NCBI GenBank assembly: GCA_015486845.1 | Contig: WFQU01000117.1 | Location: 1 to 33,637, forward strand | From: Anaerolineae bacterium | Lineage (GTDB): Bacteria; Chloroflexota; Anaerolineae; JAADDB01 | Direction of reading: 5' to 3' | DNA: 33,637 nt | Notes under the pieces: model-generated | What the model saw: only the letters and a program-made list of their open reading frames with translations | Told to the model about the DNA's origin: nothing | The model's database searches: none | Shown: positions 3,749 to 19,822 of the stretch, one piece after another | Numbering within the stretch: the stretch's first letter is position 1 | Layout: each line of letters starts with the position of its first letter | Position numbers and translations under genes: made by a program

Positions 3749-5485
3749 TCAGCCCTGCTTGGATTGCGGCAACGACCGCAAATAGCGGCGCACCTCTTCT
3801 GGTTCGCTCAGCTTGAGCACTTCCGTGCTGATTTTCTGGGCATCTTCATAGCGCCATTGGCGGATCTGCGCTTTCACAGCGGGAATGGACGGAGGCGCCA
3901 TGCTTAGTTCGTCGACGCCCAAGCCCAGCAACAATGGTGCCGCCAAGGCATCACCGGCCAATTCGCCGCAGATGCCTACCCAAATGCCGGCGGCGTGTGC
4001 AGCGATCACCACTTGTTGGATGAGCCGCAGCACGGCCGGATGCATAGCATCCGCCATTTTGCCGATTTCTGGGTGTGTGCGATCCGCAGCCATGGTGTAT
4101 TGCGAAAGATCATTCGTGCCGATGCTAAAAAAGTCGATTTCGGGTGCTAAGACATCTGCTAAGACCGCAGCAGCTGGTATTTCTACCATGATGCCCACTT
4201 CGACATCCTGGGCGTAAGGTAAGCCCTGCTTTTCCAGCGCCTGGCGGGCTTCCGCCAAATACTTTTTTGCTGCGCGGACTTCGTCCAAAGCGGCTACCAT
4301 AGGGAACATAATTTTGATGCCGGTGCTATTGGCGCCGGCCCTGAGGATCGCTTTCAGTTGCGTGACGAATAGATCCGGGTTGGCCAAAGAGAGTCGAATC
4401 CCTCGTTTGCCCAGAAAGGGGTTGGCCTCGGCGGGCAGGCGCAGATAAGGCAACGGTTTGTCACCCCCGATGTCCACCGTGCGGAAAATGATCGGCCGTC
4501 CGGCCATTACTTCCAAGTAAGGCCGGTATGCCTCGACTTGCTCTGCTTCGTCCGGCGGCGTGTCACGCTGCATGTAAAGGAACTCGGTGCGCAGCAAGCC
4601 AACACCCTCGGCGCCGAGCTGTACGGCTTGTTCCGCTTCTACTCGTCCATTGCCACCCAAATTAGCGCCTATTTCGATGGTGCGGCCATCTGGCGTTTGG
4701 GCTGGCTGTTGGCCAGCGCGGCGCGAAGCCTCCTGTTCGACCCGGTCACGCTCCATAGCGGCGCGGTAGCGAGCCAACGTTTCTGCTGAGGGATCGAGGT
4801 AAACAAGCCCCGCTTTGCCGTCTAAGAGCATTGCATCGCCAGTGTGTACGGCGTCCAAGAAAGCTGCTGGCATGCCGACTACCGCCGGTATGCCTAATCC
4901 GCGGGCCAAAATGGCAACGTGGGAAGTCTGGTTTCCTTGCACGGTGCAGAAACCCAACGTCAGTTCTTTGGGCAAGAGAATCGTTTGGGACGGGGTGAGG
5001 TTCTCGGCTACGATGATGGATGGTTGGTCCGGCTCATTGACATCTGTTGAGCGGCGGGTCAAAATGCGCAGAACCCTTTGTCCCACATCACGTAAATCGA
5101 CGGCCCGGGCGCTGAAAATGGGGTCGTTGAGGGTTTCTAACAAAGCAGCTTGTTGTTCGAAAGCAGCTTGCCACGCTTTTGGCGCGCTTTCCCCCTGTTC
5201 GATGGCGGTGTCCACTTGCTGCAGAAGCGTCGGATCGGATAAAAACATCTCGTGCGCTTCGAAAATAGCTGCTTTTTCTTTACCTAAACGTTGCAGCGCT
5301 TTTTCGTGCAATTGATGGATTTCTGTGTGCGCAGTGGCTAACGCTTGCTGGAGCCGTTCTTTTTCTTCCGCTGGGGATGCCGTAACGTTGGTCTCTGCGA
5401 TGTCAACGACCTGTGCCAGCACAAACGCTGGCGCGATAGCAATCCCTTTTGAAGTGGGATTGCCGTGAAAAAGTTTCTCTGTCAT
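3749..5485 (-). CDS. ptsI: PTS Enzyme I (PEP-protein phosphotransferase)
   Basis: A 578-residue cytoplasmic enzyme that takes phosphate from PEP and passes it to HPr. The N-terminal HPr-binding/swivelling domain carries the phospho-histidine at His189 in GNQTSHVAILARG, the same position as in E. coli EI. The C-terminal TIM barrel has the PEP-binding MVEIPAAAV, the FFSIGTNDLSQY motif and the catalytic Cys in GICGELAGD. Full length, no fused domains. It is the last gene of the leftward run, 11 bp after the SorC-type regulator. No EIIB or EIIC gene lies in the window, and the only PTS partners nearby are HPr and the EIIA-like DhaM. Its likely main job is therefore to feed the dihydroxyacetone kinase, although a general role with transporters elsewhere cannot be excluded. 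Confidence 0.97.
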   Translation of the reverse strand: MTEKLFHGNPTSKGIAIAPAFVLAQVVDIAETNVTASPAEEKERLQQALATAHTEIHQLHEKALQRLGKEKAAIFEAHEMFLSDPTLLQQVDTAIEQGESAPKAWQAAFEQQAALLETLNDPIFSARAVDLRDVGQRVLRILTRRSTDVNEPDQPSIIVAENLTPSQTILLPKELTLGFCTVQGNQTSHVAILARGLGIPAVVGMPAAFLDAVHTGDAMLLDGKAGLVYLDPSAETLARYRAAMERDRVEQEASRRAGQQPAQTPDGRTIEIGANLGGNGRVEAEQAVQLGAEGVGLLRTEFLYMQRDTPPDEAEQVEAYRPYLEVMAGRPIIFRTVDIGGDKPLPYLRLPAEANPFLGKRGIRLSLANPDLFVTQLKAILRAGANSTGIKIMFPMVAALDEVRAAKKYLAEARQALEKQGLPYAQDVEVGIMVEIPAAAVLADVLAPEIDFFSIGTNDLSQYTMAADRTHPEIGKMADAMHPAVLRLIQQVVIAAHAAGIWVGICGELAGDALAAPLLLGLGVDELSMAPPSIPAVKAQIRQWRYEDAQKISTEVLKLSEPEEVRRYLRSLPQSKQG

Positions 5486-5496
5486 AAGTATCGTCC

Positions 5497-6465
5497 TTAT
5501 AAATCATTGTCCGCCAATTCCAAAACACGGGCGGCGGCATCACTATCGGTAATCAAGCAGTCAATGACATGACTGCGCAAAGCGCCCCAGATGGCAGAGG
5601 CTTTTTCTCTTCCCCCGGCGACGCCGATAACCAGCGGAATACGGTGTAGTGCCTGCCAGGAAACGCCAATAAGCCGATGGTGGATATCCAGATCCAGAAG
5701 CTGGCCTTGGGTATCGTAGAAATAGCCACAAACATCCCCGACACCACCCCGTTCTTTGATGGCTTGGAGATCTTTCTCGGTAAGGTGCTTAGCTTGAAAT
5801 AAGCTGGAAAGCGTGGGAGGCCAGACGCCGCCGATGCCAACCAGGGCAATGTCGGATTTAGCAGCCAGTTCTATGGTTTCCTGAATAACGGGCTGCCGCA
5901 CGATGGCGTCATGGGAAGCAACGTCGCTGGCCAGCAACGGTGCGGGCAAGTATTTGTATTTGCCGCAGAGCGTTTGGGCTAACCAGCGGGTCAGGTCTGG
6001 GCCGTCTAAGATAGGGTTGACGGAGCCTGCCGTGCCGACCAGTTGTACTACGGTTACCCGCTTTTGCCGGGCAGTGCGCAGGGCACTGACAACTTGGTAC
6101 ACGCCGGTGCTCCAGGAGATGCCTAGAATCATGTTGCTCTTGAGTAGATTCATCAGCCGGTTAGCAGCTAAAACGCCTAAGCCTTGGATAATTTGGGCAT
6201 AGCCCCTGTTCTCCGACGCCATAACTAAAGCTTCTTTGATAGCGAAACGGCGTTCTATGGCAGTCTGAAGTTGGCCCACTTCACTCCAGACACCGCGAAT
6301 ACGAATGTCAACGATACCGAGCTCGCGCGCTTCTGCCAGCCAGCGGGAAATCTGTGAGCGCGAGACACGCATCTGGGCAGAGATATTGGCCTGGGTGAGG
6401 TTTTCCATGTAATATAATTGGGCAACTTTGGCCAATTTCAGTAAATGAGGGTCCCTGGTTGACAT
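5497..6465 (-). CDS. SorC/DeoR-type sugar-binding transcriptional regulator
   Basis: A 322-residue regulator of the SorC family (as in CggR, DeoR of Bacillus and LsrR). The N-terminal region (about 10-60) is a winged HTH: LAKVAQLYYMENLTQANISA then MRVSRSQISRWLAEAREL. The remainder (about 65-320) is the SugarP-isomerase-like effector domain, seen in WSTGVYQVV, VVQLVGTAG and the GIGGV and GVAGG loops. Family members usually bind phosphorylated sugars or trioses. It sits between ptsH and ptsI in the glycerol/DHA operon, so DHAP, DHA-P or glycerol-3-phosphate are reasonable inferred effectors. A 186-bp gap before its start suggests a possible internal promoter, but no convincing -35/-10 was found. 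Candidate targets are the inverted repeats at 16423-16474. Confidence 0.9.
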   Translation of the reverse strand: MSTRDPHLLKLAKVAQLYYMENLTQANISAQMRVSRSQISRWLAEARELGIVDIRIRGVWSEVGQLQTAIERRFAIKEALVMASENRGYAQIIQGLGVLAANRLMNLLKSNMILGISWSTGVYQVVSALRTARQKRVTVVQLVGTAGSVNPILDGPDLTRWLAQTLCGKYKYLPAPLLASDVASHDAIVRQPVIQETIELAAKSDIALVGIGGVWPPTLSSLFQAKHLTEKDLQAIKERGGVGDVCGYFYDTQGQLLDLDIHHRLIGVSWQALHRIPLVIGVAGGREKASAIWGALRSHVIDCLITDSDAAARVLELADNDL

Positions 6466-6949: not shown

Positions 6950-7345
6950 TTATAGTATCTTCCTCATATTACTTGCAGCTTCGGCAGCAGTGTTGACCGC
7001 CTCGAGGCTGTGTCCTAAAGAAGCCTCTACGGCAGCGACGATAGCGCCCTCGACTAATGGTGCTTCGCTCATTTTAATATTCTGCTGTTGTTCTTCCGTT
7101 AACATCTCTATAGCCATCTGCGTACTCATCACTGCGCTGCCTAAATCCAGCAGCACTAATACCCCGTCAGGGGCATAAGCTTTTTGCAAGGCAGTAAAAA
7201 TACGCTCTGCATTCGTCCCCATAGTTTGGTCATCGACGCCGCCAGCGGCAGCGATTAGCACACGTTTTTGGCTCATTTGTTCGGCCATTTCTTTGACGCC
7301 GACTGCGACTTTGGCGCTATGGGATACGATGACAATACCTACCAT
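6950..7345 (-). CDS. dhaM: DhaM, EIIA(Man)-type phosphotransfer subunit of PTS-dependent dihydroxyacetone kinase
   Basis: A 131-residue protein matching the N-terminal EIIA(Man)-fold domain of DhaM. The active His9 is in IVIVSHSAKVAVGV. LLDLGSAVMSTQMAIEML and APLVEGAIVAAVEASLG are DhaM signatures that separate it from sugar EIIA. It receives phosphate from HPr and rephosphorylates ADP bound in DhaL. E. coli DhaM is a three-domain EIIA-HPr-EI protein of about 470 residues. Only the EIIA domain is present here, while HPr and EI are separate genes downstream. It overlaps the methyltransferase stop by 7 nt, so translation is probably coupled. It is separated from dhaK/dhaL by the whole glpA-sdh block. 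Confidence 0.95.
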   Translation of the reverse strand: MVGIVIVSHSAKVAVGVKEMAEQMSQKRVLIAAAGGVDDQTMGTNAERIFTALQKAYAPDGVLVLLDLGSAVMSTQMAIEMLTEEQQQNIKMSEAPLVEGAIVAAVEASLGHSLEAVNTAAEAASNMRKIL

Positions 7346-8632: not shown

Positions 8633-9037
8633 TCAATGAAACATCAAAATAGCCGCTATAAGCGACACGAAAACAGTTAGCACGATTACAGTCCAGAACA
8701 TGATTTTATGCTGTCTGACGCCTATGTTGAGTGCCATGAGCATGAGCCGTAAGCCGTTCAATCCGTGGTAGATGATGACGGCCACTAAACCTACCTCTAA
8801 CAAAATGAGGATAGGACTCTCCATGAACTGAACCATATTGTCATAAGCGGCGGCACCTTGGGTAAGCGTCCTCAAGACATAGAAATGCAAGAATAAATAG
8901 AGGACTAACAATATCCCCGTGAGACGATGCAACGCAAACGCCCAAGCACCTACACCTTTCTTAGTGACACTAAACCATCTCTCCCAATTCTTTTTGGGCA
9001 AGAGGGGCTCCGGTCTTTTATATTCTTCTGCCAACAT
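8633..9037 (-). CDS. SdhC-like cytochrome b membrane anchor
   Basis: A 134-residue anchor with a soluble N-terminal 30 residues and three predicted helices (about 34-56, 75-101, 112-133). The SdhC signature HRLTGILLVLYLFLH (His37, His51) and the haem motif YHGLNGLRLMLMALN (His91) are clear. The ATG follows GGAGGGC, 12 bp after the Fe-S gene stop. In the family such subunits bind haem b and quinone and hold the Fe-S subunit to the cytoplasmic face of the membrane. The pair of anchors with several conserved histidines resembles two-subunit, diheme type A/B complexes. That they work with GlpA rather than SdhA is inferred from gene order. Confidence 0.93.
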   Translation of the reverse strand: MLAEEYKRPEPLLPKKNWERWFSVTKKGVGAWAFALHRLTGILLVLYLFLHFYVLRTLTQGAAAYDNMVQFMESPILILLEVGLVAVIIYHGLNGLRLMLMALNIGVRQHKIMFWTVIVLTVFVSLIAAILMFH

Positions 9038-9049
9038 AATGCCCTCCTA

Positions 9050-9757
9050 TTAGAACAGATGTTTCAGTTTGTCGGAAATTAGATGCTGGCGCAGATACAT
9101 GATCATGCTGCCGGGATCTACGTCGTTAGGACACACTTCGCTGCACTCCATGGCCGAATGGCAACGCCAGCAACCTTCTGCGTTATCCACCATTTGCAAG
9201 ATGGCGGGAACATCCTGACCGCGTGGTTCTTGCACGACCCGCGCTGCCGCGGCTAAAGCGGCCGGTCCTAAATAGGCCGGATCTGTGGCCACAACCGGGC
9301 AAGCGGAAAGGCAAAGCCCGCATTCGAGACAGCTTTCGTAGCGTGTATAACTGCCGACTTCTTCCGATGGCTTTCCCTCTGGCAAGTACTCGCTTTGGCG
9401 TATTAACGGCATTTCCACGGGTGCGTATTTATTGAAAAACGGTTCCATACTCACAACAAGGTCGCTGACGAGCGGCGCATTGCGCAACGGCTCGACGGTC
9501 ACTTCGGTGGTGCCTAACGCCAGGACATTGGCCACACAGGCTAAGACTTCTTTGCCGTTGACCAACATGCCGCAGGTGCCGCAGGAACCGTGATGACAGG
9601 AATGCCGATAAGTCAAGGTCTCGTCATTGATCCGCAATTTCTCCAGCACGTCCAGCACTGACATTTGCTCGTCGACTTCGATCTTGAACGTATCATAGCG
9701 AGGTGGGTCGATGACCCCGGGCTTGTAGCGGAAAATCTTAAAGGTTACTTCAGTCAT
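9050..9757 (-). CDS. SdhB/FrdB-like iron-sulfur subunit, linked to glpA
   Basis: A 235-residue protein with the full ligand set of a succinate dehydrogenase Fe-S subunit: [2Fe-2S] Cys54, 59, 62, 74 (SCHHGSCGTCG...C), then CLECGLCLSACP and CHSAMECSEVCP supplying [4Fe-4S] (Cys143, 146, 149, 209) and [3Fe-4S] (Cys153, 199, 205). Cys196, three residues before the second block, is an extra cysteine. The track start at 9820 lies inside glpA. The ATG at 9757 has a G-rich RBS (GGGGGGTG) and begins with the expected MTEVTFKIFRY, so it is preferred. It starts 2 bp after the glpA stop, with its RBS inside glpA, so the two are translationally coupled. It should carry electrons from a flavoprotein to the haem b/quinone anchor. 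In this operon the flavoprotein is GlpA. Confidence 0.95.
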   Translation of the reverse strand: MTEVTFKIFRYKPGVIDPPRYDTFKIEVDEQMSVLDVLEKLRINDETLTYRHSCHHGSCGTCGMLVNGKEVLACVANVLALGTTEVTVEPLRNAPLVSDLVVSMEPFFNKYAPVEMPLIRQSEYLPEGKPSEEVGSYTRYESCLECGLCLSACPVVATDPAYLGPAALAAAARVVQEPRGQDVPAILQMVDNAEGCWRCHSAMECSEVCPNDVDPGSMIMYLRQHLISDKLKHLF

Positions 9758-9759
9758 TT

Positions 9760-10935
9760 TCACACCCCCCGCCGGTAATAAGCAGTGTGGGGCAACAAGA
9801 CAACCTCTCGGGTACGACATGCTACGTCGAGCCCTAATTTTTCCACGACGACATTGGCGGTTACTTCAGCCATGCCCCGTGCTGTGGTTGCTTTGCCGCC
9901 GGTGATGGTTACAAAGCCTATGACATTGTCGCGATCTTCATGATCGAAACACTTGAAGGTCCTGCTCAACTCACGCCCGGTCGTGGCGCCGCTTTCCGAT
10001 CCAATGAGGGGTCGGGCTGCTGCCCAAGCCGCTCGCATTGGCGCATTTTTGACGGCCGGCACAAGCATAGCGCCCATTTTGTACATGAGCTCTATATGTT
10101 CTTTCTTCATTTCCAGTTGGTCTGGATCTTTCACGACCCAGGAACTGGTGCCGATGACCGAAAGGGTCCGCTGTGGCAAGATGATGTCGCCATCGCCAGA
10201 GCGGTGCATGCGGTTAAGCACCATGTTGTTCCAGCGCCCGTAAACGGCGACTAGAACGCCAGGGGATGGCTGCATAGGCACATGAACGCCGGCCATAGCT
10301 GCGATTTTATCGGACCAGGCACCTGCTGCGTTCACCACCAGGTCGGCGCCGATGTCGTAGGTTTTTTCTGTGACGTGATCGCGTACCCTGACCCCCACAA
10401 CAGTTTTATCTTTCATTAGAAGTTTGGTGACTTGCGTGTAAGTCTTGATAACAGCGCCGTTGTGCTGCGCCGTGGCCAGAAACCGCAGGGGAAGCCGCAT
10501 GGCGTCCATGGTGCCATCCGGCACCTCTACGGCTGCTTTGACGGCCGGGTTGAGGTTGGGCTCGCGTTGTAATGCTTCTTGGGTTGTGATCTCTTGATAC
10601 GGAATAGCGCATGTCTCTAAACCGGCCAGAAAGGCGTCGTGATAAGCCATATCCTCATCGGTGATGGCGACAAAAAGACCGTTGTTCAACTCGAAAGTAC
10701 CAGGTGCAATTTTGCGCAGAATCATGTTTTCTTGAATACATTCCTTGGCCGATTCCTGGTCTTTCACCGCGTAACGCGCGCCGCTGTGCAATAATCCGTG
10801 GTGCCGGCCGGTCGTGCCAGAAGTGACCTCTCCGCGTTCCACGATTGTGACACGCACGCCGCGCAGCGTCAGGTCATGGGCTAACGCTGCACCTGTGGCC
10901 CCACCTCCCACAATGACTACATGGGGCTTTCCCAT
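9760..10935 (-). CDS. glpA: Short GlpA-type FAD glycerol-3-phosphate dehydrogenase
   Basis: A 391-residue DAO-fold flavoprotein that oxidises sn-glycerol-3-phosphate to DHAP. The FAD site is VVIVGGGATGAALAHDLTLR with VTIVERGE. The GlpA-specific loop SGTTGRHHGLLHSGARYAVK follows, and VPDGTMDAMRL, VNAAGAWSDKIA and GFVTITGGKATTARGMAE match anaerobic GlpA throughout. E. coli GlpA is about 540 residues because a BFD-like [2Fe-2S] domain follows. This protein stops soon after the catalytic domain, with no remnant. No glpB or glpC is adjacent. The stop codon is not a recent frameshift scar that I can see, because the next gene's RBS and ATG are fitted to it. The start is supported by GAGGAGGAA upstream. 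It has its own intergenic region after the glpK terminator, so it probably heads a separate transcript. Confidence 0.93.
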   Translation of the reverse strand: MGKPHVVIVGGGATGAALAHDLTLRGVRVTIVERGEVTSGTTGRHHGLLHSGARYAVKDQESAKECIQENMILRKIAPGTFELNNGLFVAITDEDMAYHDAFLAGLETCAIPYQEITTQEALQREPNLNPAVKAAVEVPDGTMDAMRLPLRFLATAQHNGAVIKTYTQVTKLLMKDKTVVGVRVRDHVTEKTYDIGADLVVNAAGAWSDKIAAMAGVHVPMQPSPGVLVAVYGRWNNMVLNRMHRSGDGDIILPQRTLSVIGTSSWVVKDPDQLEMKKEHIELMYKMGAMLVPAVKNAPMRAAWAAARPLIGSESGATTGRELSRTFKCFDHEDRDNVIGFVTITGGKATTARGMAEVTANVVVEKLGLDVACRTREVVLLPHTAYYRRGV

Positions 10936-11479: not shown

Positions 11480-12994
11480 TTACTCAACCCAATTAAATGT
11501 GCGCTCAACAGCTTTCAACCAACCTTTGTACAGGCGGTCCCTTTCTTCATCGCCCATCTTGGGTTTCCAGGTATGAGCAATTTGCCAATTCGTCCTCAAG
11601 TCATCCAGGTTGTTCCAGAAACCAACGGCCAGCCCGGCGGCATAAGAAGCGCCTAATGCTGTCGTTTCGGCAACCTGCGGTCGCACCACTGGCACGCCGA
11701 GAATATCAGCCTGGAACTGCATCAAAAGCTCATTGTAAACCATCCCACCGTCGACTTTCAACGCTTTCAGGTTGACGCCAGAATCTTTGTTCATGGCATC
11801 CAAGACCTCGCGTGTCTGAAAAGCGGTTGCTTCCAAAGCCGCTCGGCCAATGTGTCCTTTATTGATGTAGCGGGTGAGACCTACGATAACGCCGCGAGCA
11901 TCAGATCGCCAGTATGGTGCGAACAGACCGGAGAAGGCAGGTACGAAATAAATACCGCCGTTGTCTTCCACGCTCTTGGCTAACTCTTCGACCTCGGCTG
12001 ACGTGGAAATCATGCCCAGGTTATCCCGCAGCCACTGTACCAAAGCGCCGGTAATAGCGATGGAACCTTCCAAAGCGTAGTTGGCCGGCGCGTCGCCGAA
12101 TTTATAGGCTAACGTCGTCAATAAACCGCTCTTGCTCTGCACTGGCTTCGTGCCGGTGTTCAACAGCATGAAGCAGCCGGTACCATACGTGTTCTTCGCT
12201 TCACCAACACTGTAGCAGGTTTGGCCGACCAAAGCAGCTTGCTGGTCACCTAAAGCGCCGGCTACAGGAATGGCCATGCCAAACGGGCCATCTTTAGGCG
12301 TGTAGCCGTAAACTTTCGGATCACTGGAAGGACGAATCTCTGGCATCATTGATCGCGGAATGCCCATCACTTTCAGCATGTCCTCGTCCCAGTCCAAGGT
12401 CTCCAAGTTCATAAGCATGGTGCGGCTGGCATTGGTGACATCGGTCACGTGTGCGCCGCCATTGGGCCCACCGGTCAACCACCAGATTTCCCAGCTATCG
12501 ATGTTGCCGAAATAAGCGTCACCTTTTTCAGCATCTTCGCGCAGTCCGGGCACATTTTCCAACATCCATTTGATCTTGGGGCCGGAGAAATAGGTCGCCA
12601 GCGGCAAGCCAACTTTGGTGCGGAAGCGATCCTGGCCGCCATCTTTGGCCAACTCGTTGCAAATCTTGTCGGTGCGGGTATCCTGCCAAACAATGGCATT
12701 GTAATACGGTTTACCCGTCTTTTTGTTCCAGACCACGGTGGTTTCGCGCTGGTTCGTCACACCAACGGCTGCCAGTTCGGATGCATCCACGTGTGATTTT
12801 TCCAGGGCGCCTTTGATAACATCTTGGGTCCTGGCCCAAATTTCCATCGGATCATGCTCGACCCAGCCGGGCTTGGGATAAATCTGCTCGTGCTCCATCT
12901 GATGCGACCCAATTACCTTGCCTTCATGGTCGAAGATCATGAAGCGGGTACTGGTAGTTCCTTGATCGACAGCTCCTACATATTTCTTTGTCAT
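11480..12994 (-). CDS. glpK: Glycerol kinase
   Basis: A 504-residue FGGY kinase that phosphorylates glycerol to sn-glycerol-3-phosphate. GlpK signatures run the length: [86 protein letters not shown] with the catalytic Asp, [14 protein letters not shown] and [19 protein letters not shown]. The region just before GDQQAAL reads [15 protein letters not shown] and lacks the histidine phosphorylated by HPr in Firmicutes GlpK (from memory of that family), so direct PTS control by that route is unlikely. The ATG is preceded by AAGGAGGGTG. It is last in the glpF-dhaK-dhaL-glpK run and is followed by the terminator at 11268-11300. Confidence 0.97.
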
Positions 12995-13037
12995 CGTAAC
13001 ACCCTCCTTGTGTTATGCATCGAGTGAAATAAACAAC

Positions 13038-13676
13038 TCACACTTCTTTGTGATTCCAAACTTTTTCTGCACTTTGAATCAGAAGATAACTGGATGTTGC
13101 TCCTGGATCCTGGTGATTCGCACTGCGCTCACCCAAATAACTGGCTCGTCCTTTGCGTGCGACCCATGGTATAGTAGCTTTCATCCCTTCCTCAGCAGCG
13201 ATCGTAGTCTTTTCCAAGGCCACGGATAAGGTGTCGCCGTTCGTGACTGCTTTCTGAAAAGCCTCCACAGCCGGTGTCCAGGCATCTACCATGGTCTTGT
13301 CACCTGGGACAGCTTTTCCTCTCTGTTTGATGCCTTCTAAAGCAGCCTGAAACAACTTTAGAACGTCTTCTTCGGAAAGTTCATTTTTGTTTCCGGCGGC
13401 CATGCCCATGCGCAGGAAAAGCGTGCCATACAGCGGACCGCTGGCCCCACCCACGGTGGAAACTAAAGCCATACCTACCTTTTTCAAGATAGTCCCTATG
13501 TCTTTATCTTCGACGCTTGGTAGTTGAGCCATGACAGCTTTGAAGCCACGTTGCATGTTGATGCCGTGGTCGGCATCGCCAATGGCAGCATCTAATTCGG
13601 TGAGGTACGTTTCGTTGGCGTCAACAACATCGGCATAGTGCTTGATCCAGTTCAGCACGTCTTCTTTGGTGACCAT
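13038..13676 (-). CDS. dhaL: Dihydroxyacetone kinase subunit DhaL
   Basis: A 212-residue all-helical nucleotide-binding subunit. The Mg-ADP ligands are in LDAAIGDADHGIN (Asp29, Asp34, Asp36), equivalent to Asp30/35/37 of E. coli DhaL. GGASGPLYGTLF, PGDKTMVDAW and ARKGRASYLGERSANHQDPG complete the signature. In PTS-dependent systems the ADP stays bound as a cofactor and is rephosphorylated by phospho-DhaM, then DhaL transfers the phosphate to dihydroxyacetone held by DhaK. The presence of dhaM in the same cluster supports the PTS-dependent type. It lies 25 bp after dhaK and 43 bp before glpK. Confidence 0.96.
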   Translation of the reverse strand: MVTKEDVLNWIKHYADVVDANETYLTELDAAIGDADHGINMQRGFKAVMAQLPSVEDKDIGTILKKVGMALVSTVGGASGPLYGTLFLRMGMAAGNKNELSEEDVLKLFQAALEGIKQRGKAVPGDKTMVDAWTPAVEAFQKAVTNGDTLSVALEKTTIAAEEGMKATIPWVARKGRASYLGERSANHQDPGATSSYLLIQSAEKVWNHKEV

Positions 13677-13701
13677 AGCACTTCCCTCGGTTCCAGGTTG
13701 G

Positions 13702-14703
13702 TTACATTCCCCACCGCAGACCGGGTGTGTGCACCGGCGCGTCCCAGTATTTAATCATTTCGTCATCAGCGCGCAACAAAGTGATGGAGAAACCAGCCAT
13801 TTCCAAGGACGTAATGTAGTTGCCGATGAGATTTCGTTCGATTTTGATTCCTTTACCTTGGCAGATCTGCGCTAAGCGGCGGTAAGCAACGTACAACTCA
13901 ATGAGTGGTGTGCCGCCCATGCCATTGACCATGGCAATGATCCGATCGCCGGATTTGAATGGCAAGTCGGTTAAAATAGCGTCTGCCATCATATCCACGA
14001 CTTCATCGACAGGTTTTATTTTCATGCGCTCGCGCCCTGGCTCGCCATGGATACCGATGCCGATTTCCATTTCATCGTCGCCAAGCTCGAAGGTCGGCTT
14101 GCCGGCTACCGGAACGGTGCAAGAGGTCAATGCCATGCCCATGCTCCGGCCGTTTTCGTTGACTCTGTTGGCCAGTGCTGTGAGTTCTTTCAACGGCATG
14201 CCCGCTTCCGCCGCGCCGCCAGCAATCTTTTCCACGAATACCGTCACGCCCACGCCGCGACGTCCTTGCGTGTAAAGGCTATCTTGCACAGCTACATCGT
14301 CATTGGTAACCATAGAAGCGACTTCGATGCCATCTGCGCCGGCCATCTCTGCTGCCATTTCGAAATTCATGACATCGCCGCTGTAGTTTTTGACGATGTG
14401 TAGAACGCCTGCGCCGCCGTTAACCGCTTTGGTGGCATCGTAAATCTGGTCCGGTGTTGGTGAAGTGAATACTTCGCCGGGGCAAGCTGCATGCAACATG
14501 CCGATCCCTACATAGCCGCCGTGGAGCGGTTCATGGCCGCTGCCGCCGCCGGAAACGATACCGACTTTTCCTTTGACAGGTGCATCAGCTCGCACAATGT
14601 AATTGGGAGCAAAGTGCACGCGTACCAAATCTGGATGAGCGAAAACAATACCTTCTAGCTCTTCCTTTACAACATCTTCTGGCTTATTGATTAGTTTTTT
14701 CAT
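13702..14703 (-). CDS. dhaK: Dihydroxyacetone kinase substrate-binding subunit DhaK
   Basis: A 333-residue subunit that binds dihydroxyacetone as a hemiaminal on a histidine. [19 protein letters not shown] (about 48-66) and the covalent His219 in [15 protein letters not shown] are both present, and [11 protein letters not shown] and [12 protein letters not shown] are family motifs. Length matches bacterial DhaK (about 330-355), without the fused DhaL domain of ATP-dependent kinases. Product DHAP enters lower glycolysis. The gene follows glpF across a 155-bp gap that contains two hairpins, so its level relative to glpF may be tuned there. Confidence 0.97.
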
Positions 14704-15659: not shown

Positions 15660-15793
15660 CGATCAGTTTCTCCTTCTTAACAAGTAAAGTGGCAACACGA
15701 ATCATAAATTGCCCAAAAAACCGAAAACAGCTACTCCGAACAATATACTGAATACTGACGGTACAGCTTTATGTAATGAAATCACCCCCTCTC

Positions 15794-15807
15794 TTGATGT
15801 AAATCAC
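15794..15807 (-). promoter_or_regulatory. FNR-like site upstream of glpF
   Basis: TTGAT-GTAA-ATCAC differs from the FNR consensus TTGAT-N4-ATCAA at one base. It lies about 135 bp before the glpF ATG and about 55 bp upstream of a possible -10 hexamer TATATT on the minus strand near 15740, for which no good -35 is visible. A CRP/FNR-superfamily activator is therefore plausible. No such regulator gene is in the window. Confidence 0.35.
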
Positions 15808-15995
15808 GGTGTGCTGCGTTTCTCCTCTCAACGATAATTAATGATAGGAGGAAAACGTTCCCGCAGTCTTTCATCAAATTCGAAAGATGTGGTAAATCAG
15901 CATATCTTTCTCTGCCATATCCACTTTCTTGGATGGGCTCGGGGTTAAGATTGATGAAAGCTATTGTAACAATCGGATTTTGACTTCGCTGTGCA

Positions 15996-16011
15996 TGTAA
16001 CGACTATCACA
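15996..16011. promoter_or_regulatory. CRP-like site TGTAA-N6-TCACA
   Basis: TGTAA-CGACTA-TCACA matches the CRP half-site pattern TGTGA-N6-TCACA with one mismatch. It overlaps CATGTAAC at 15994-16001, whose complement GTTACATG recurs at 16035-16042, within ATCATG-N7-CATGAT (16026-16044). Site function is not shown. Confidence 0.3.
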
Positions 16012-16149
16012 ATGCGCTTTCGTTAATCATGATCGTTACATGATAAGGAAACAAATGTCATAACACCGATATCACACATAAATTCTCAAAAAGCTGTGCT
16101 GTAATTGTTAAAGTGCGCTTCGCGCTTACGCACGCGGCCAATCTCTCCC

Positions 16150-16198
16150 TATACAACCTAATGGATGTCTTTGTTTAGGGTGTTTTATTGGTTGTATA
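16150..16198. other. Long-arm inverted repeat in the glpF upstream region
   Basis: TATACAACCTAAT (16150-16162) pairs with ATTGGTTGTATA (16187-16198), leaving one bulged T and a 24-base loop. No T-run follows on either strand in terminator position. A second possible hairpin of C7 (16209-16215) with G6 (16234-16239) adjoins it. These could shape a leader RNA from the upstream promoter. Confidence 0.45.
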
Positions 16199-16422
16199 AA
16201 GGAATTAGCCCCCCCTGATATCAATAAACATGTGGGGGGAAGTGGAAAAACTGGAGTAATAACAATGAGAAGTTTGTTCGGCTGATGATAGTAGCGCTAC
16301 TGCATAACGACTGCTTGTGTGTGGATAACGCTTATTTGAAGGACAAGCTACCATTGCTTTATGCTCCCAACAAATTAAGTCTTTGAGTCATTGGCCATTA
16401 AGCCGATTGATGTTTTTATTAC

Positions 16423-16439
16423 TACATTGTAATAATGTA
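16423..16439 (-). promoter_or_regulatory. Operator-like inverted repeat, promoter-distal
   Basis: TACATT-GTAAT-AATGTA is a perfect 6-5-6 inverted repeat about 45-60 bases downstream of the predicted transcription start of the 16487-16514 minus-strand promoter. It shares its 5-base spacing with the neighbouring 16452-16474 repeat. Confidence 0.45.
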
Positions 16440-16451
16440 ACGCATGTACAC

Positions 16452-16474
16452 ATATGTGCATGCCTTGCACATAT
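16452..16474 (-). promoter_or_regulatory. Operator-like inverted repeat, promoter-proximal
   Basis: ATATGTGCA-TGCCT-TGCACATAT is a perfect 9-5-9 inverted repeat placed right after the predicted start site of the consensus promoter, which suits a repressor. The overlapping CACATATGTG is a further 10-bp palindrome. The SorC-family protein of the cluster is the natural candidate ligand, by context only. Confidence 0.55.
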
Positions 16475-16486
16475 TCTACACTTGGT

Positions 16487-16514
16487 AGTATAGCACAAAA
16501 ACCGGATTTGTCAA
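16487..16514 (-). promoter_or_regulatory. Consensus sigma-70 promoter directed toward glpF
   Basis: On the minus strand TTGACA (16514-16509) is followed after 16 bases by TATACT (16492-16487). It points toward glpF, whose start is about 820 nt away, with no terminator recognised between. It could equally serve an unannotated small RNA. Confidence 0.75.
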
Positions 16515-16940: not shown

Positions 16941-18356
16941 ATGTCCGATCGCTTGACCGTGGTCATTGACCAGGGAACCCACGCGACCAGGGCCCTGGCC
17001 ATCGATCAACAGGGCCGTATACGCGCTTCAGCCTGGCAAAAAGTGGCTTTACATCGTTTGGGTCGGGAAATGGTGGAGCAAGATGCTGAAGAGATTGTGC
17101 GTTCGGTGTTGCAAGTGCTGAAAACAGTGTTGGCGGATCCGGAAGTCGTGCGGATGTCGATTGCACAGGCCGGCCTGGCCACTCAGCGTTCCACGGTCGT
17201 GGCCTGGGACCGTGAGAGTGGCCAGCCGTTAGCGCCGGCGCTCAGTTGGCAGGACCGTCGCACGGCGCATTGGCTGCAGCGGTTGCAGCCATATCAAGAA
17301 GAGATCAAACAGCGCACCGGACTTCCTTTGTCGCCCCATTATGGCGCCGGCAAATTGCGCTGGTACCTTGATCACGTTTCTATTGTTCGCCAGAAATTGA
17401 GCGGGAAGCGGCTGGCTATGGGCCCGTTGGCCAGTTTTCTCCTCTCCCGACTGCTGGAAGGACAGCCTTTGGTCGTTGATCACGCTAATGCGTCCCGCAC
17501 GCAACTCTGGAATATCGCCACTTGTGATTGGGATCCCTGGCTTTTAGACTTATTCGGCGTGCCGGAGGAAGCGCTACCCCATTGCCGGCCTATTTCCTCT
17601 CTTTACGGCGTTCTGCGCGGCACGGATATTCCGCTGTTGGCCGTGAATGGGGATCAAAACGCGGCGCTCTATGGCTGGGGGCAACCCCGTGGCGATACGG
17701 CCATCGTCAATTTGGGCACAGGGGCTTTTGTTCTGCTGCCGACGGGCAATGAATTGATACGTCACCCTCGCCTGCTTAGTGGCATTACCAATAGCAGCGA
17801 GACGGAGCGCTCGTATACTCTTGAAGGCACCGTCAATGGCGCCGGTGCAGCGCTTTCCTGGGCTGCCGAGCAGTGGCAAATCCCCGATCTCATTGCCCGG
17901 CTGCCCGGTTGGTTAGCCGAAGAAAACGAGCCGCCGATTTTTCTGAATAGCATTGGCGGTTTAGGCTCTCCCTGGTGGCAGACCGGGCCGGTGCCGGCCA
18001 TTGTCGGCGAGGGCAGCCTTGGACAAAAAGTGGTCGCGGTGGTGGAGAGTGTCTTGTTCTTATTGCAGGCGAATATCGACGCCATGGCCGAGGCCGGTTT
18101 GAACATCGATCGGCTGCAAGTCAGCGGCGGCCTGGCCCGGCTGGACGGATTGTGCCAGCGGTTGGCCGATTTGACTGGGTTGCCGGTGTACCGTTCCGTC
18201 GAAACAGAGGCAACGGCCAAAGGAATCGCCTGGCTGGCTGCCAGCGGCCGGGGCCGGTGGGGTGCAAGTGCGGCTGAAAGTGTGTTCTCGCCGAGAGGAA
18301 ATGGTGCGCTCCAAGACCGCTACCGACAATTTTGCCGCCTGATCGTTGCGGAATGA
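16941..18356 (+). CDS. Divergent FGGY-family kinase, GlpK-like, substrate unknown
   Basis: A 471-residue carbohydrate/polyol kinase. It keeps DQGTHATRALAIDQQG at the N-terminus, SWQDRRT, HYGAGKLRWYLD, VDHANASRTQLWN, NGDQNAALYGWG with the catalytic Asp, NLGTGAFVLLPTG and the C-terminal VSGGLARLDGLCQRL. It is shorter than GlpK (504 here) and replaces APYW-ARG-IVGLTRG with SPWWQTGPVPAIVGEG, so it is a paralogue with a changed substrate pocket. The start follows AAGGAGG at good spacing. A GPH-type symporter gene begins 30 bp downstream, suggesting uptake and phosphorylation of the same sugar or polyol. Pentulose, erythritol-like or glycerol-like substrates are all possible, and none is assigned. 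Confidence 0.88.
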   Translation: MSDRLTVVIDQGTHATRALAIDQQGRIRASAWQKVALHRLGREMVEQDAEEIVRSVLQVLKTVLADPEVVRMSIAQAGLATQRSTVVAWDRESGQPLAPALSWQDRRTAHWLQRLQPYQEEIKQRTGLPLSPHYGAGKLRWYLDHVSIVRQKLSGKRLAMGPLASFLLSRLLEGQPLVVDHANASRTQLWNIATCDWDPWLLDLFGVPEEALPHCRPISSLYGVLRGTDIPLLAVNGDQNAALYGWGQPRGDTAIVNLGTGAFVLLPTGNELIRHPRLLSGITNSSETERSYTLEGTVNGAGAALSWAAEQWQIPDLIARLPGWLAEENEPPIFLNSIGGLGSPWWQTGPVPAIVGEGSLGQKVVAVVESVLFLLQANIDAMAEAGLNIDRLQVSGGLARLDGLCQRLADLTGLPVYRSVETEATAKGIAWLAASGRGRWGASAAESVFSPRGNGALQDRYRQFCRLIVAE

Positions 18357-18385
18357 TGGCAATGCACAGCTAACGGGTCACCGTT

Positions 18386-19822
18386 ATGGCACGGAAACTA
18401 TCGCAACGATCAAAACAAACTCTCCCGGGAAAAATGAGCATGGAAAATAATCGTATGATGGAGGCTGAGATCAATCGGCGTCCGGAAAAGCTATCCCCTC
18501 GCCGGAAACTGACCTGGCATGAAGTCGTCGGCTATGGCATGGGAGATTTTGGCAGCAATATGGTTTGGGGGCTCACCAGTGTGTTCCTCTTGTTCTTTTA
18601 CACAGATGTCTTTGGCTTAACAGCTTTGGCGGCCGGTGTTTTGTTATCGATTGCCCGCGTTCTCGATGCCGGTTTCGATCTTATTTCCGGCCTGCTGACT
18701 GAACAATTACACTTTCGTTGGGGAAAGTTTCGCACCTATTTGCTTTTCGGGCCGATTCCTATGGGCATATTGCTTGTTCTGAGTTTTACAACACCCCATA
18801 TCAGCGACGCTATGAAGCTCTTTTACGCCTACGCAACCTATATTTTGCTCCTTTTTGTGTTTTCGGCCACCAATACACCTTATGGCGCTTTAGCGACCAC
18901 GATGACGCAAGATATCGCTGAGCGTAACAGTTTATCCTCGGCGCGTGCTATCGGTGCTATTATTGGTTCCGGGTTTGTCGTGGGGATGGCTACCCCGTGG
19001 TTAGTCTCCGTATTGGGGCGCGGCAATGAGGCGCGCGGGTTTCAATGGGTTGCACTTCTGTTCGCCGTGATCTGCGTTTTGGCGCTTTGGACTACTTTCA
19101 TTACGAGCAAGGAGTATTACGTTTCAGCGTCGGATAGTGGATTTTCTCTGCGGAAACTTAGTTTCATCATCATGCACGATCCGCCGTTCCTCATAATGAC
19201 TTCATCTGCGCTGCTATCCTCTGCCAGCTGGCTCACGCACAATGCCATGCCCCCCTATTATGTGACGTACGACATGGGCCGGCCCGGGGTTTTGAGTTTG
19301 TTTCTTGGTATCGGGACAATAGCCATTTTAGCCGGCGTTGCCGGGGGAAAGGCTGTTATTCGTATTCTCGGTAAACGCGATACGATGATTGTCGGGAATA
19401 TTATCAGCGCGGCCGCAATGATTGTTTTCTACTTCACGCCATTTGACAATTTGGTGATGATCTTCGCATTGCAGATTATAGTTTCTTTTGGTGGCGGTGT
19501 TGGATTGGTGCCCCTTTGGTCAATGTTAGCCGACACGGTTGAATACGGCGAATGGAAAACCGGCTACCGCGCTGAAGGAGGGCTCTATTCTGTAGCCAGT
19601 GCGGTGATGAAAATCGGGTGGGCGATTTCTGGTGCACTTCCGGCCTGGATACTGAGCAGCAGCGGCTACATTCCCAACCGGGGACAGCCGCTCTCCTCGC
19701 TGGTGGGTATCAATATCGCTTTTAATCTGTTGCCGGCGTTTTTGCTTTTGGCAGCGACGATTCTGCTCTTCTGGTATCACCTGGATGAGAAGCTATTTGA
19801 CCAAATTGTGAGTGAGCTGTGA
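18386..19822 (+). CDS. GPH-family (MelB-like) sugar:cation symporter
   Basis: A permease of up to 478 residues with about 12 transmembrane helices. The family signature appears as GYGMGDFGSNMVWGL, the DAGFD pair equivalent to the cation-site acidic residues of MelB, FRWGKFRTYLL, NTPYGALATTMTQD and YGEWKTGYRAEGG in the late loop. GPH transporters import glycosides, pentosides or hexuronides with H+ or Na+. The true start is uncertain: the track ATG has no ribosome binding site, and ATG at 18434 (MSMENN) or the MMEAE pair at about 18455 would trim the charged N-terminal tail without touching the first helix. It is paired with the FGGY kinase upstream and followed by a repeat-rich gap. Confidence 0.9.
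   Translation: MARKLSQRSKQTLPGKMSMENNRMMEAEINRRPEKLSPRRKLTWHEVVGYGMGDFGSNMVWGLTSVFLLFFYTDVFGLTALAAGVLLSIARVLDAGFDLISGLLTEQLHFRWGKFRTYLLFGPIPMGILLVLSFTTPHISDAMKLFYAYATYILLLFVFSATNTPYGALATTMTQDIAERNSLSSARAIGAIIGSGFVVGMATPWLVSVLGRGNEARGFQWVALLFAVICVLALWTTFITSKEYYVSASDSGFSLRKLSFIIMHDPPFLIMTSSALLSSASWLTHNAMPPYYVTYDMGRPGVLSLFLGIGTIAILAGVAGGKAVIRILGKRDTMIVGNIISAAAMIVFYFTPFDNLVMIFALQIIVSFGGGVGLVPLWSMLADTVEYGEWKTGYRAEGGLYSVASAVMKIGWAISGALPAWILSSSGYIPNRGQPLSSLVGINIAFNLLPAFLLLAATILLFWYHLDEKLFDQIVSEL

What the first reader, a model, noticed from the sequence alone, without database searches (positions are those of the whole stretch)
16423..16514. Consensus promoter followed by two perfect inverted repeats about 820 nt upstream of glpF
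TTGACA-N16-TATACT on the minus strand is followed by ATATGTGCA-N5-TGCACATAT and TACATT-N5-AATGTA. The layout (repeats just after the start site, equal 5-base centres) is that of a repressed promoter. The distance implies an unusually long glpF leader or a separate small RNA.
Basis: partly seen in the sequence, partly recalled or inferred. Interest (0 to 1): 0.6.

Follow-up and report, generated by a model that had tools for sequence, protein, structure and literature searches.

The report
SorC-type operator at glycerol operon promoter

Summary
In detail: on the minus strand TTGACA-N16-TATACT (16514-16487) is followed by ATATGTGCA-N5-TGCACATAT (16474-16452) and TACATT-N5-AATGTA (16439-16423). 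The first palindrome is significant and recurs, just after the -10 box of glpF operons, in three relatives. It has the TGNACA/TGTNCA half-sites of SorC/DeoR operators, and a SorC-family regulator (5497-6465) lies in the same co-directional cluster glpF-dhaK-dhaL-glpK-glpA-...-dhaM-sorC-ptsI. In another family with the orthologous cluster, the operator becomes ATGTTCA-N15-TGAACAT (gap +10, one helical turn) and the recognition helix changes from SRS to SRP; B. subtilis DeoR also has SRP and TGAACA/TGTTCA sites. The second repeat is absent from the relatives inspected and is likely chance. A long glpF leader is usual in this class (promoter about 200-600 nt upstream): 38 of 49 leaders carry an AAAGGAGGTGAT-like sequence 55-170 nt before glpF, resembling the cry3A STAB-SD, and 24 of 47 carry an intrinsic terminator. 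The window keeps the SD-like element (15781-15793), has no recognisable terminator, and has about 550 extra nt not found in relatives. No evidence for a separate small RNA. Ordinary repressor/operator, new regulon; the shared leader is the more interesting lead.

The parts
16509..16514 (-). -35 box TTGACA
   Evidence: TTGACA also in G003, L104 and G036
16487..16492 (-). -10 box TATACT with upstream TGC (extended -10)
   Evidence: corresponding boxes in relatives
16452..16474 (-). core operator ATATGTGCA-AGGCA-TGCACATAT, inferred +8 to +30
   Evidence: conserved in G003, L104, G036
16447..16480 (-). proposed full SorC-type operator of two half-operators: degenerate left TGTAGAATATGTGCA, good right TGCACA-TA-TGTGTA
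   Evidence: pattern of TGCACA-nn-TGTGCA units in other SorC operons; inference for the left half
16423..16439 (-). second inverted repeat TACATT-N5-AATGTA; probably chance
   Evidence: 6-bp arms expected in 17% of pieces; absent in G003, L104, G036
15660..16481 (-). inferred glpF leader, about 820 nt
   Evidence: promoters of relatives about 200-605 nt upstream
15800..16446 (-). leader stretch holding the extra AT-rich non-coding segment; no ORF of 50 aa within 15752-16374, no match elsewhere in own genome or 40 relatives
   Evidence: operator-to-SD distance is far shorter in G003 and L104
15781..15793 (-). SD-like element GAGAGGGGGTGAT without start codon, candidate 5' mRNA stabiliser (STAB-SD type)
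   Evidence: STAB-SD description PMC4113751
14859..15659 (-). glpF, MIP-family glycerol channel
11480..14703 (-). dhaK (13702-14703), dhaL (13038-13676), glpK (11480-12994)
6950..7345 (-). dhaM-like EIIA-man protein
5497..6465 (-). SorC-family regulator, candidate repressor binding the operator
   Evidence: Pfam PF04198 E=4e-62; PDB LsrR/DeoR/SorC matches; co-clusters with glp/dha genes
3749..5485 (-). PTS enzyme I of the dihydroxyacetone system

Best explanation
16514-16447 (minus strand) is the regulated promoter of the glycerol/dihydroxyacetone operon glpF-dhaK-dhaL-glpK-glpA-... The SorC-family regulator encoded downstream in the same cluster (5497-6465) binds, probably as a tetramer, to the tandem half-sites that cover the start site (about +1 to +34) and blocks initiation or early elongation. 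A phosphorylated three-carbon metabolite (dihydroxyacetone phosphate or glycerol-3-phosphate) releases it. The operon, probably including sorC itself, is then transcribed with a long leader whose AGGGGGTGAT element near -130 probably binds 30S subunits without starting translation and protects the processed mRNA 5' end. Shown from sequence: promoter, operator, conservation, gene clustering, operator/recognition-helix co-variation, leader element enrichment. Inferred: which protein binds, effector, tetramer, operon extent, role of the SD-like element.
For: Promoter plus palindrome recur together upstream of glpF in G003 (same family, 72% identity, E=1e-4), in L104, Anaerolineales MAG 131-447 (TTGACA-N17-TATAGT then ATTTGTGCA-N5-CGCACATAT), and in G036, found by an unbiased pattern scan of 396 genomes: 21 matches, 0 with the reversed control pattern. 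Several SorC-encoding operons in the class start with TTGACA..TATAAT followed by [TGCACAnnTGTGCA]-N5-[TGCACAnnTGTGCA]-like sites (L054, L055, L057, L061, L062, L063). The orthologous sorC (52-55% identity) sits with dha/glp genes in G303, G277, G324 and G199, whose glpF promoters carry ATGTTCA-N15-TGAACAT. Their recognition helix is SRPQ, the window's is SRSQ; B. subtilis DeoR has SRPT and operator sites TTGAACA / ACATATGTTCAA (PMC11229326). No other promoter-linked perfect copy of TGTGCA-N5-TGCACA in the window's genome, as expected of a local regulator.
Against: No binding or expression data. The left half-operator is degenerate in the window. L104, which has the operator, has no sorC gene on its 10-kb contig. 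In G036 the SorC protein is only 43% identical. SorC has paralogues in the same genome (C130) that were not excluded as the binding protein. Gap lengths 5 and 15 are joined by an inferred one-turn shift.
Confidence: 0.78

Rival explanations
1. The palindrome is an operator, but of another regulator (a SorC paralogue at C130, or an unrelated GntR/LacI-type protein), and the clustered SorC binds elsewhere.
For: The genome has further SorC proteins; several pattern matches in the class have no SorC within 1.5 kb; many Anaerolineae glp/dha clusters lack SorC altogether.
Against: The operator type tracks SorC operons and the recognition-helix change across families; the paralogue contig L044 has no matching site.
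Confidence: 0.13
2. The leader makes a regulated terminated RNA: transcription from this promoter is attenuated, and the leader RNA (riboswitch, leader peptide or small RNA) is the main control.
For: 24 of 47 glpF leaders in the class have a sense-strand intrinsic terminator between promoter region and gene, against about 2.4 in shuffles and 5 on the other strand; in f45 genomes it lies downstream of the SorC-type operator; the window leader folds better than shuffles, z -3.6 with 20 shuffles.
Against: The window itself, G003 and L104 have no recognisable terminator; no Rfam match; no GlpP antiterminator family in the genome; no conserved aptamer found; leader ORFs only in small groups.
Confidence: 0.12
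3. The repeats are chance and the real glpF promoter lies closer to the gene, within the extra segment.
For: An 820-nt leader is longer than in nearly all relatives examined; the second repeat is within chance.
Against: The promoter-operator pair is conserved in three relatives; no better promoter-like site on the minus strand between 16486 and 15660.
Confidence: 0.05

Closest known systems
B. subtilis DeoR and its dra-nupC-pdp operator (SorC/DeoR subfamily)
   Same: HTH plus sugar-binding domain; TGAACA/TGTTCA half-sites, including ACATATGTTCAA, very like the window's TGCACATATGTGTA and the f45 ACATATGTTCA; two half-operators (PMC11229326)
   Different: DeoR operator lies at -60 to -21, here inferred +1 to +34; TGTGCA instead of TGTTCA arms with SRS instead of SRP helix; effector there deoxyribose-5-phosphate; regulon here is glycerol/DHA
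B. subtilis CggR / gapA operator
   Same: operator downstream of the transcription start, triose-phosphate metabolism, tetramer on two half-operators (PMC11229326)
   Different: CGGGAC-type sites at +32 to +77, different DNA-binding domain subfamily
Bacillus glpFK leader with GlpP antitermination (from general knowledge)
   Same: glpF operon with an intrinsic terminator in the leader (true for f45 relatives, not for the window)
   Different: no GlpP-family gene above cut-off in the genome or 59 relatives; window leader has no terminator
STAB-SD 5' stabiliser of Bacillus thuringiensis cry3A mRNA
   Same: long leader (-558) with a non-initiating SD-like sequence near a processed 5' end at -129 (PMC4113751); here the SD-like element starts at about -134
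   Different: no transcript or RNase J evidence here; sequence in the window is GAGAGGGGGTGAT

Membership tests
SorC-family regulator (5497-6465) | C-terminal sugar-binding domain PF04198 over its cut-off | tested here: met
   210 bits vs cut-off 27
SorC-family regulator (5497-6465) | N-terminal SorC/DeoR-type HTH, full-length similarity to LsrR/DeoR/SorC structures | tested here: met
   PDB 4go1 E=6e-39, 8r7y E=6e-38, 2w48 E=1e-33
DeoR equivalog (NCBIfam NF053881) | score over curated cut-off | tested here: not met
   204 vs 420 bits: a SorC/DeoR-subfamily protein, not DeoR itself
SorC/DeoR-type operator | TGNACA/TGTNCA half-sites next to a promoter, conserved in relatives | tested here: met
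SorC/DeoR-type operator | two half-operators for a tetramer | tested here: inconclusive
   right half good, left half degenerate in the window; both halves clear in L054 and f45
SorC/DeoR-type operator | binding by the regulator, relieved by a sugar phosphate | not testable with these tools
   needs gel shift or footprint
GlpP-type antitermination leader | leader terminator upstream of glpF | tested here: not met
   no terminator in the window leader, though present in 24 of 47 class leaders
GlpP-type antitermination leader | GlpP (PF04309) in the genome | tested here: not met
   none in G000; 0 of 60 genomes over the cut-off; controls positive
STAB-SD 5' stabiliser | strong SD-like sequence in the 5' UTR not followed by a start codon | tested here: met
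   GAGAGGGGGTGAT 15781-15793; element in 38 of 49 glpF leaders vs 0.49 in shuffles
STAB-SD 5' stabiliser | stable processed 5' end at the element, dependence on RNase J and 30S binding | not testable with these tools
   needs 5'-end mapping

The most novel reading that the evidence does not exclude
glpF operons of the Anaerolineae share a leader with two layers beyond the repressor: a terminator-based attenuator working without GlpP, and a 16S-complementary AAAGGAGGTGAT element that sets the mature 5' end. The window would be a variant in which the attenuator has been replaced by about 550 nt of new structured leader.
Probability: 0.25. Interest if true: 0.6.

Novelty: new member of a known kind. 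Interest (0 to 1): 0.4.

Why it matters
It assigns a regulator, an operator and a probable inducer class to glycerol/dihydroxyacetone use in uncultured Chloroflexota, and gives a natural experiment for SorC/DeoR specificity: a Ser/Pro change in the recognition helix tracks a G/T change in the operator arms and a one-turn change in spacing. The class-wide glpF leader (SD-like stabiliser plus terminator) is a testable lead on mRNA stability and attenuation outside the Firmicutes.

Tried and rejected
Small RNA in the leader: no terminator, no Rfam family, no homologue. GlpP antitermination: no PF04309 gene over the cut-off. Mobile repeat or MITE as source of the extra segment: no second copy in the genome. 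Second repeat as a second operator: not conserved, within chance. SD-like element as start of a conserved small ORF: reading frames after it are not conserved and usually lack a start codon. Genome-wide regulon of the operator: the only other perfect TGTGCA-N5-TGCACA lies inside a coding region. Leader covariation: too few alignable leaders; only groups of 2-4 could be aligned. Paper search for SorC glycerol regulons in Chloroflexi found nothing relevant.

Full report
What is there. On the minus strand the window has TTGACA (16514-16509), a 16-nt spacer, TATACT (16492-16487) with a TG before it, then ATATGTGCA-AGGCA-TGCACATAT (16474-16452) and TACATT-ATTAC-AATGTA (16439-16423). It is the best promoter-like match in 2 kb. 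Nine-base perfect arms are expected in 0.27% of such 64-nt pieces of shuffled leader, six-base arms in 17%. Only the first repeat is therefore remarkable by itself.

Conservation. Searching the 901 nt upstream of glpF in 41 genomes found one match apart from the window itself: exactly the promoter and first palindrome, upstream of glpF in G003. A named Anaerolineales MAG (L104, JALUXH010000174) has TTGACA-N17-TATAGT followed by ATTTGTGCA-CTGCG-CGCACATAT upstream of glpF. A pattern scan of 396 genomes of the class for TGTGCA-N5-TGCACA-N2-TGTGC gave 21 matches and none for the reversed control. Several follow a good promoter, and one (G036) is again upstream of glpF, with a small membrane-protein gene in between. 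The second repeat is in none of these three.

Gene setting. The promoter reads into glpF, dhaK, dhaL, glpK, glpA, an SdhB-like and an SdhC-like subunit, a methyltransferase, dhaM, a SorC-family regulator and ptsI, all co-directional. The regulator has the SorC sugar-binding domain and full-length similarity to LsrR, DeoR and SorC structures. Orthologues (71% in G003, 52-55% in G303, G277, G324, G199, G038, G143) mostly sit with dhaM/ptsI and the dha and glp genes.

Operator and regulator vary together. In G303, G277, G324 and G199 the glpF promoter is followed by ATGTTCA-N15-TGAACAT. The arm changes G to T and the gap grows from 5 to 15, about one helical turn. Their recognition helix reads SRPQ where the window reads SRSQ. 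B. subtilis DeoR, whose operator is ATTGAACAAAATTTCAATTACCAATTTACATATGTTCAA (PMC11229326), has SRPT. Other SorC operons of the class with SRS helices carry [TGCACA-nn-TGTGCA]-N5-[TGCACA-nn-TGTGCA]-like sites right after TTGACA..TATAAT. I read the window site as one such operator, 16480-16447, with a weak left half. Binding, tetramer and effector (a triose phosphate by analogy and gene content) are inferred.

The leader. The start is inferred near 16481, about 820 nt before glpF. In the relatives the promoter lies about 200-605 nt upstream, so a long leader is usual and the window's is extreme. The difference is about 550 nt of AT-rich sequence between operator and 15800, without ORFs of 50 aa in 15752-16374, and with no match in its own genome or 40 relatives. 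The leader folds better than shuffles (z -3.6, 20 shuffles) but cannot be tested for covariation.

Two features of class glpF leaders deserve attention. First, an AAAGGAGGTGAT-like sequence, which I take from general knowledge to be complementary to the 16S 3' end, lies 55-170 nt before the gene in 38 of 49 leaders (shuffle mean 0.49). Among 135 genes with long upstream gaps in a control set only 14 had it, and 9 of those 14 are glpF. It is usually not followed by a start codon. In the window it is GAGAGGGGGTGAT at 15793-15781. This matches the description of STAB-SD in cry3A: a -558 transcript and a stable end at -129 protected by 30S binding (PMC4113751). Second, 24 of 47 leaders have an intrinsic terminator between promoter region and gene, against about 2.4 in shuffles and 5 on the opposite strand. 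In f45 genomes it is downstream of the SorC-type operator, so it can attenuate that promoter. In many other genomes the upstream gene appears to read in the same direction, so there it may instead end that gene. The window, G003 and L104 lack a terminator. GlpP, the known antiterminator of Bacillus glp leaders, is absent.

Verdict. A real, conserved, SorC/DeoR-type repressor operator at the promoter of a glycerol/dihydroxyacetone operon: a new regulon of a known kind. The second repeat and the small-RNA idea are not supported. The shared leader elements are the part most worth testing.

Noticed in passing
window 8633-10935: GlpA (391 aa, below the GlpA equivalog cut-off) is followed by an SdhB-like iron-sulfur protein and an SdhC-like cytochrome b protein instead of GlpB/GlpC, suggesting a glycerol-3-phosphate dehydrogenase with a succinate-dehydrogenase-type electron path.
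   Followed up: partly
L067, L074, L076 about -325 to -186 of glpF; L101, L144 about -273 to -133: Possible leader ORFs (such as MLILIVRCPDL..., MKKLFSASQRLFRVCWLQVSQPV...) that end at, in or near the leader terminator; similar within each small group only.
   Followed up: partly
L094, L095, L096, L097 upstream of glpF: Strong intrinsic terminators (about -29 to -35 kcal/mol) downstream of the SorC-type operator and upstream of glpF: candidate attenuators.
   Followed up: partly
L054, L055, L062 upstream of operon genes: SorC-regulated PTS-like operons also carry the AAAGGRGGTGA element after the promoter-operator, about 100 nt before the first transporter gene in L054 and L055.
   Followed up: no
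window 16941-19822: Divergent pair on the other side of the promoter: an FGGY kinase resembling glycerol kinase but far below the cut-off (297 vs 590 bits), and an MFS_2 sugar transporter.
   Followed up: no
window 16100-16260: In the extra leader segment: a hairpin with about 20-bp imperfect arms (GCTAATTCCTTTATACAACC / GGTTGTATAGGGAGAGATTGGC) and a C-run/G-run pair, with local folding z about -3.2.
   Followed up: no
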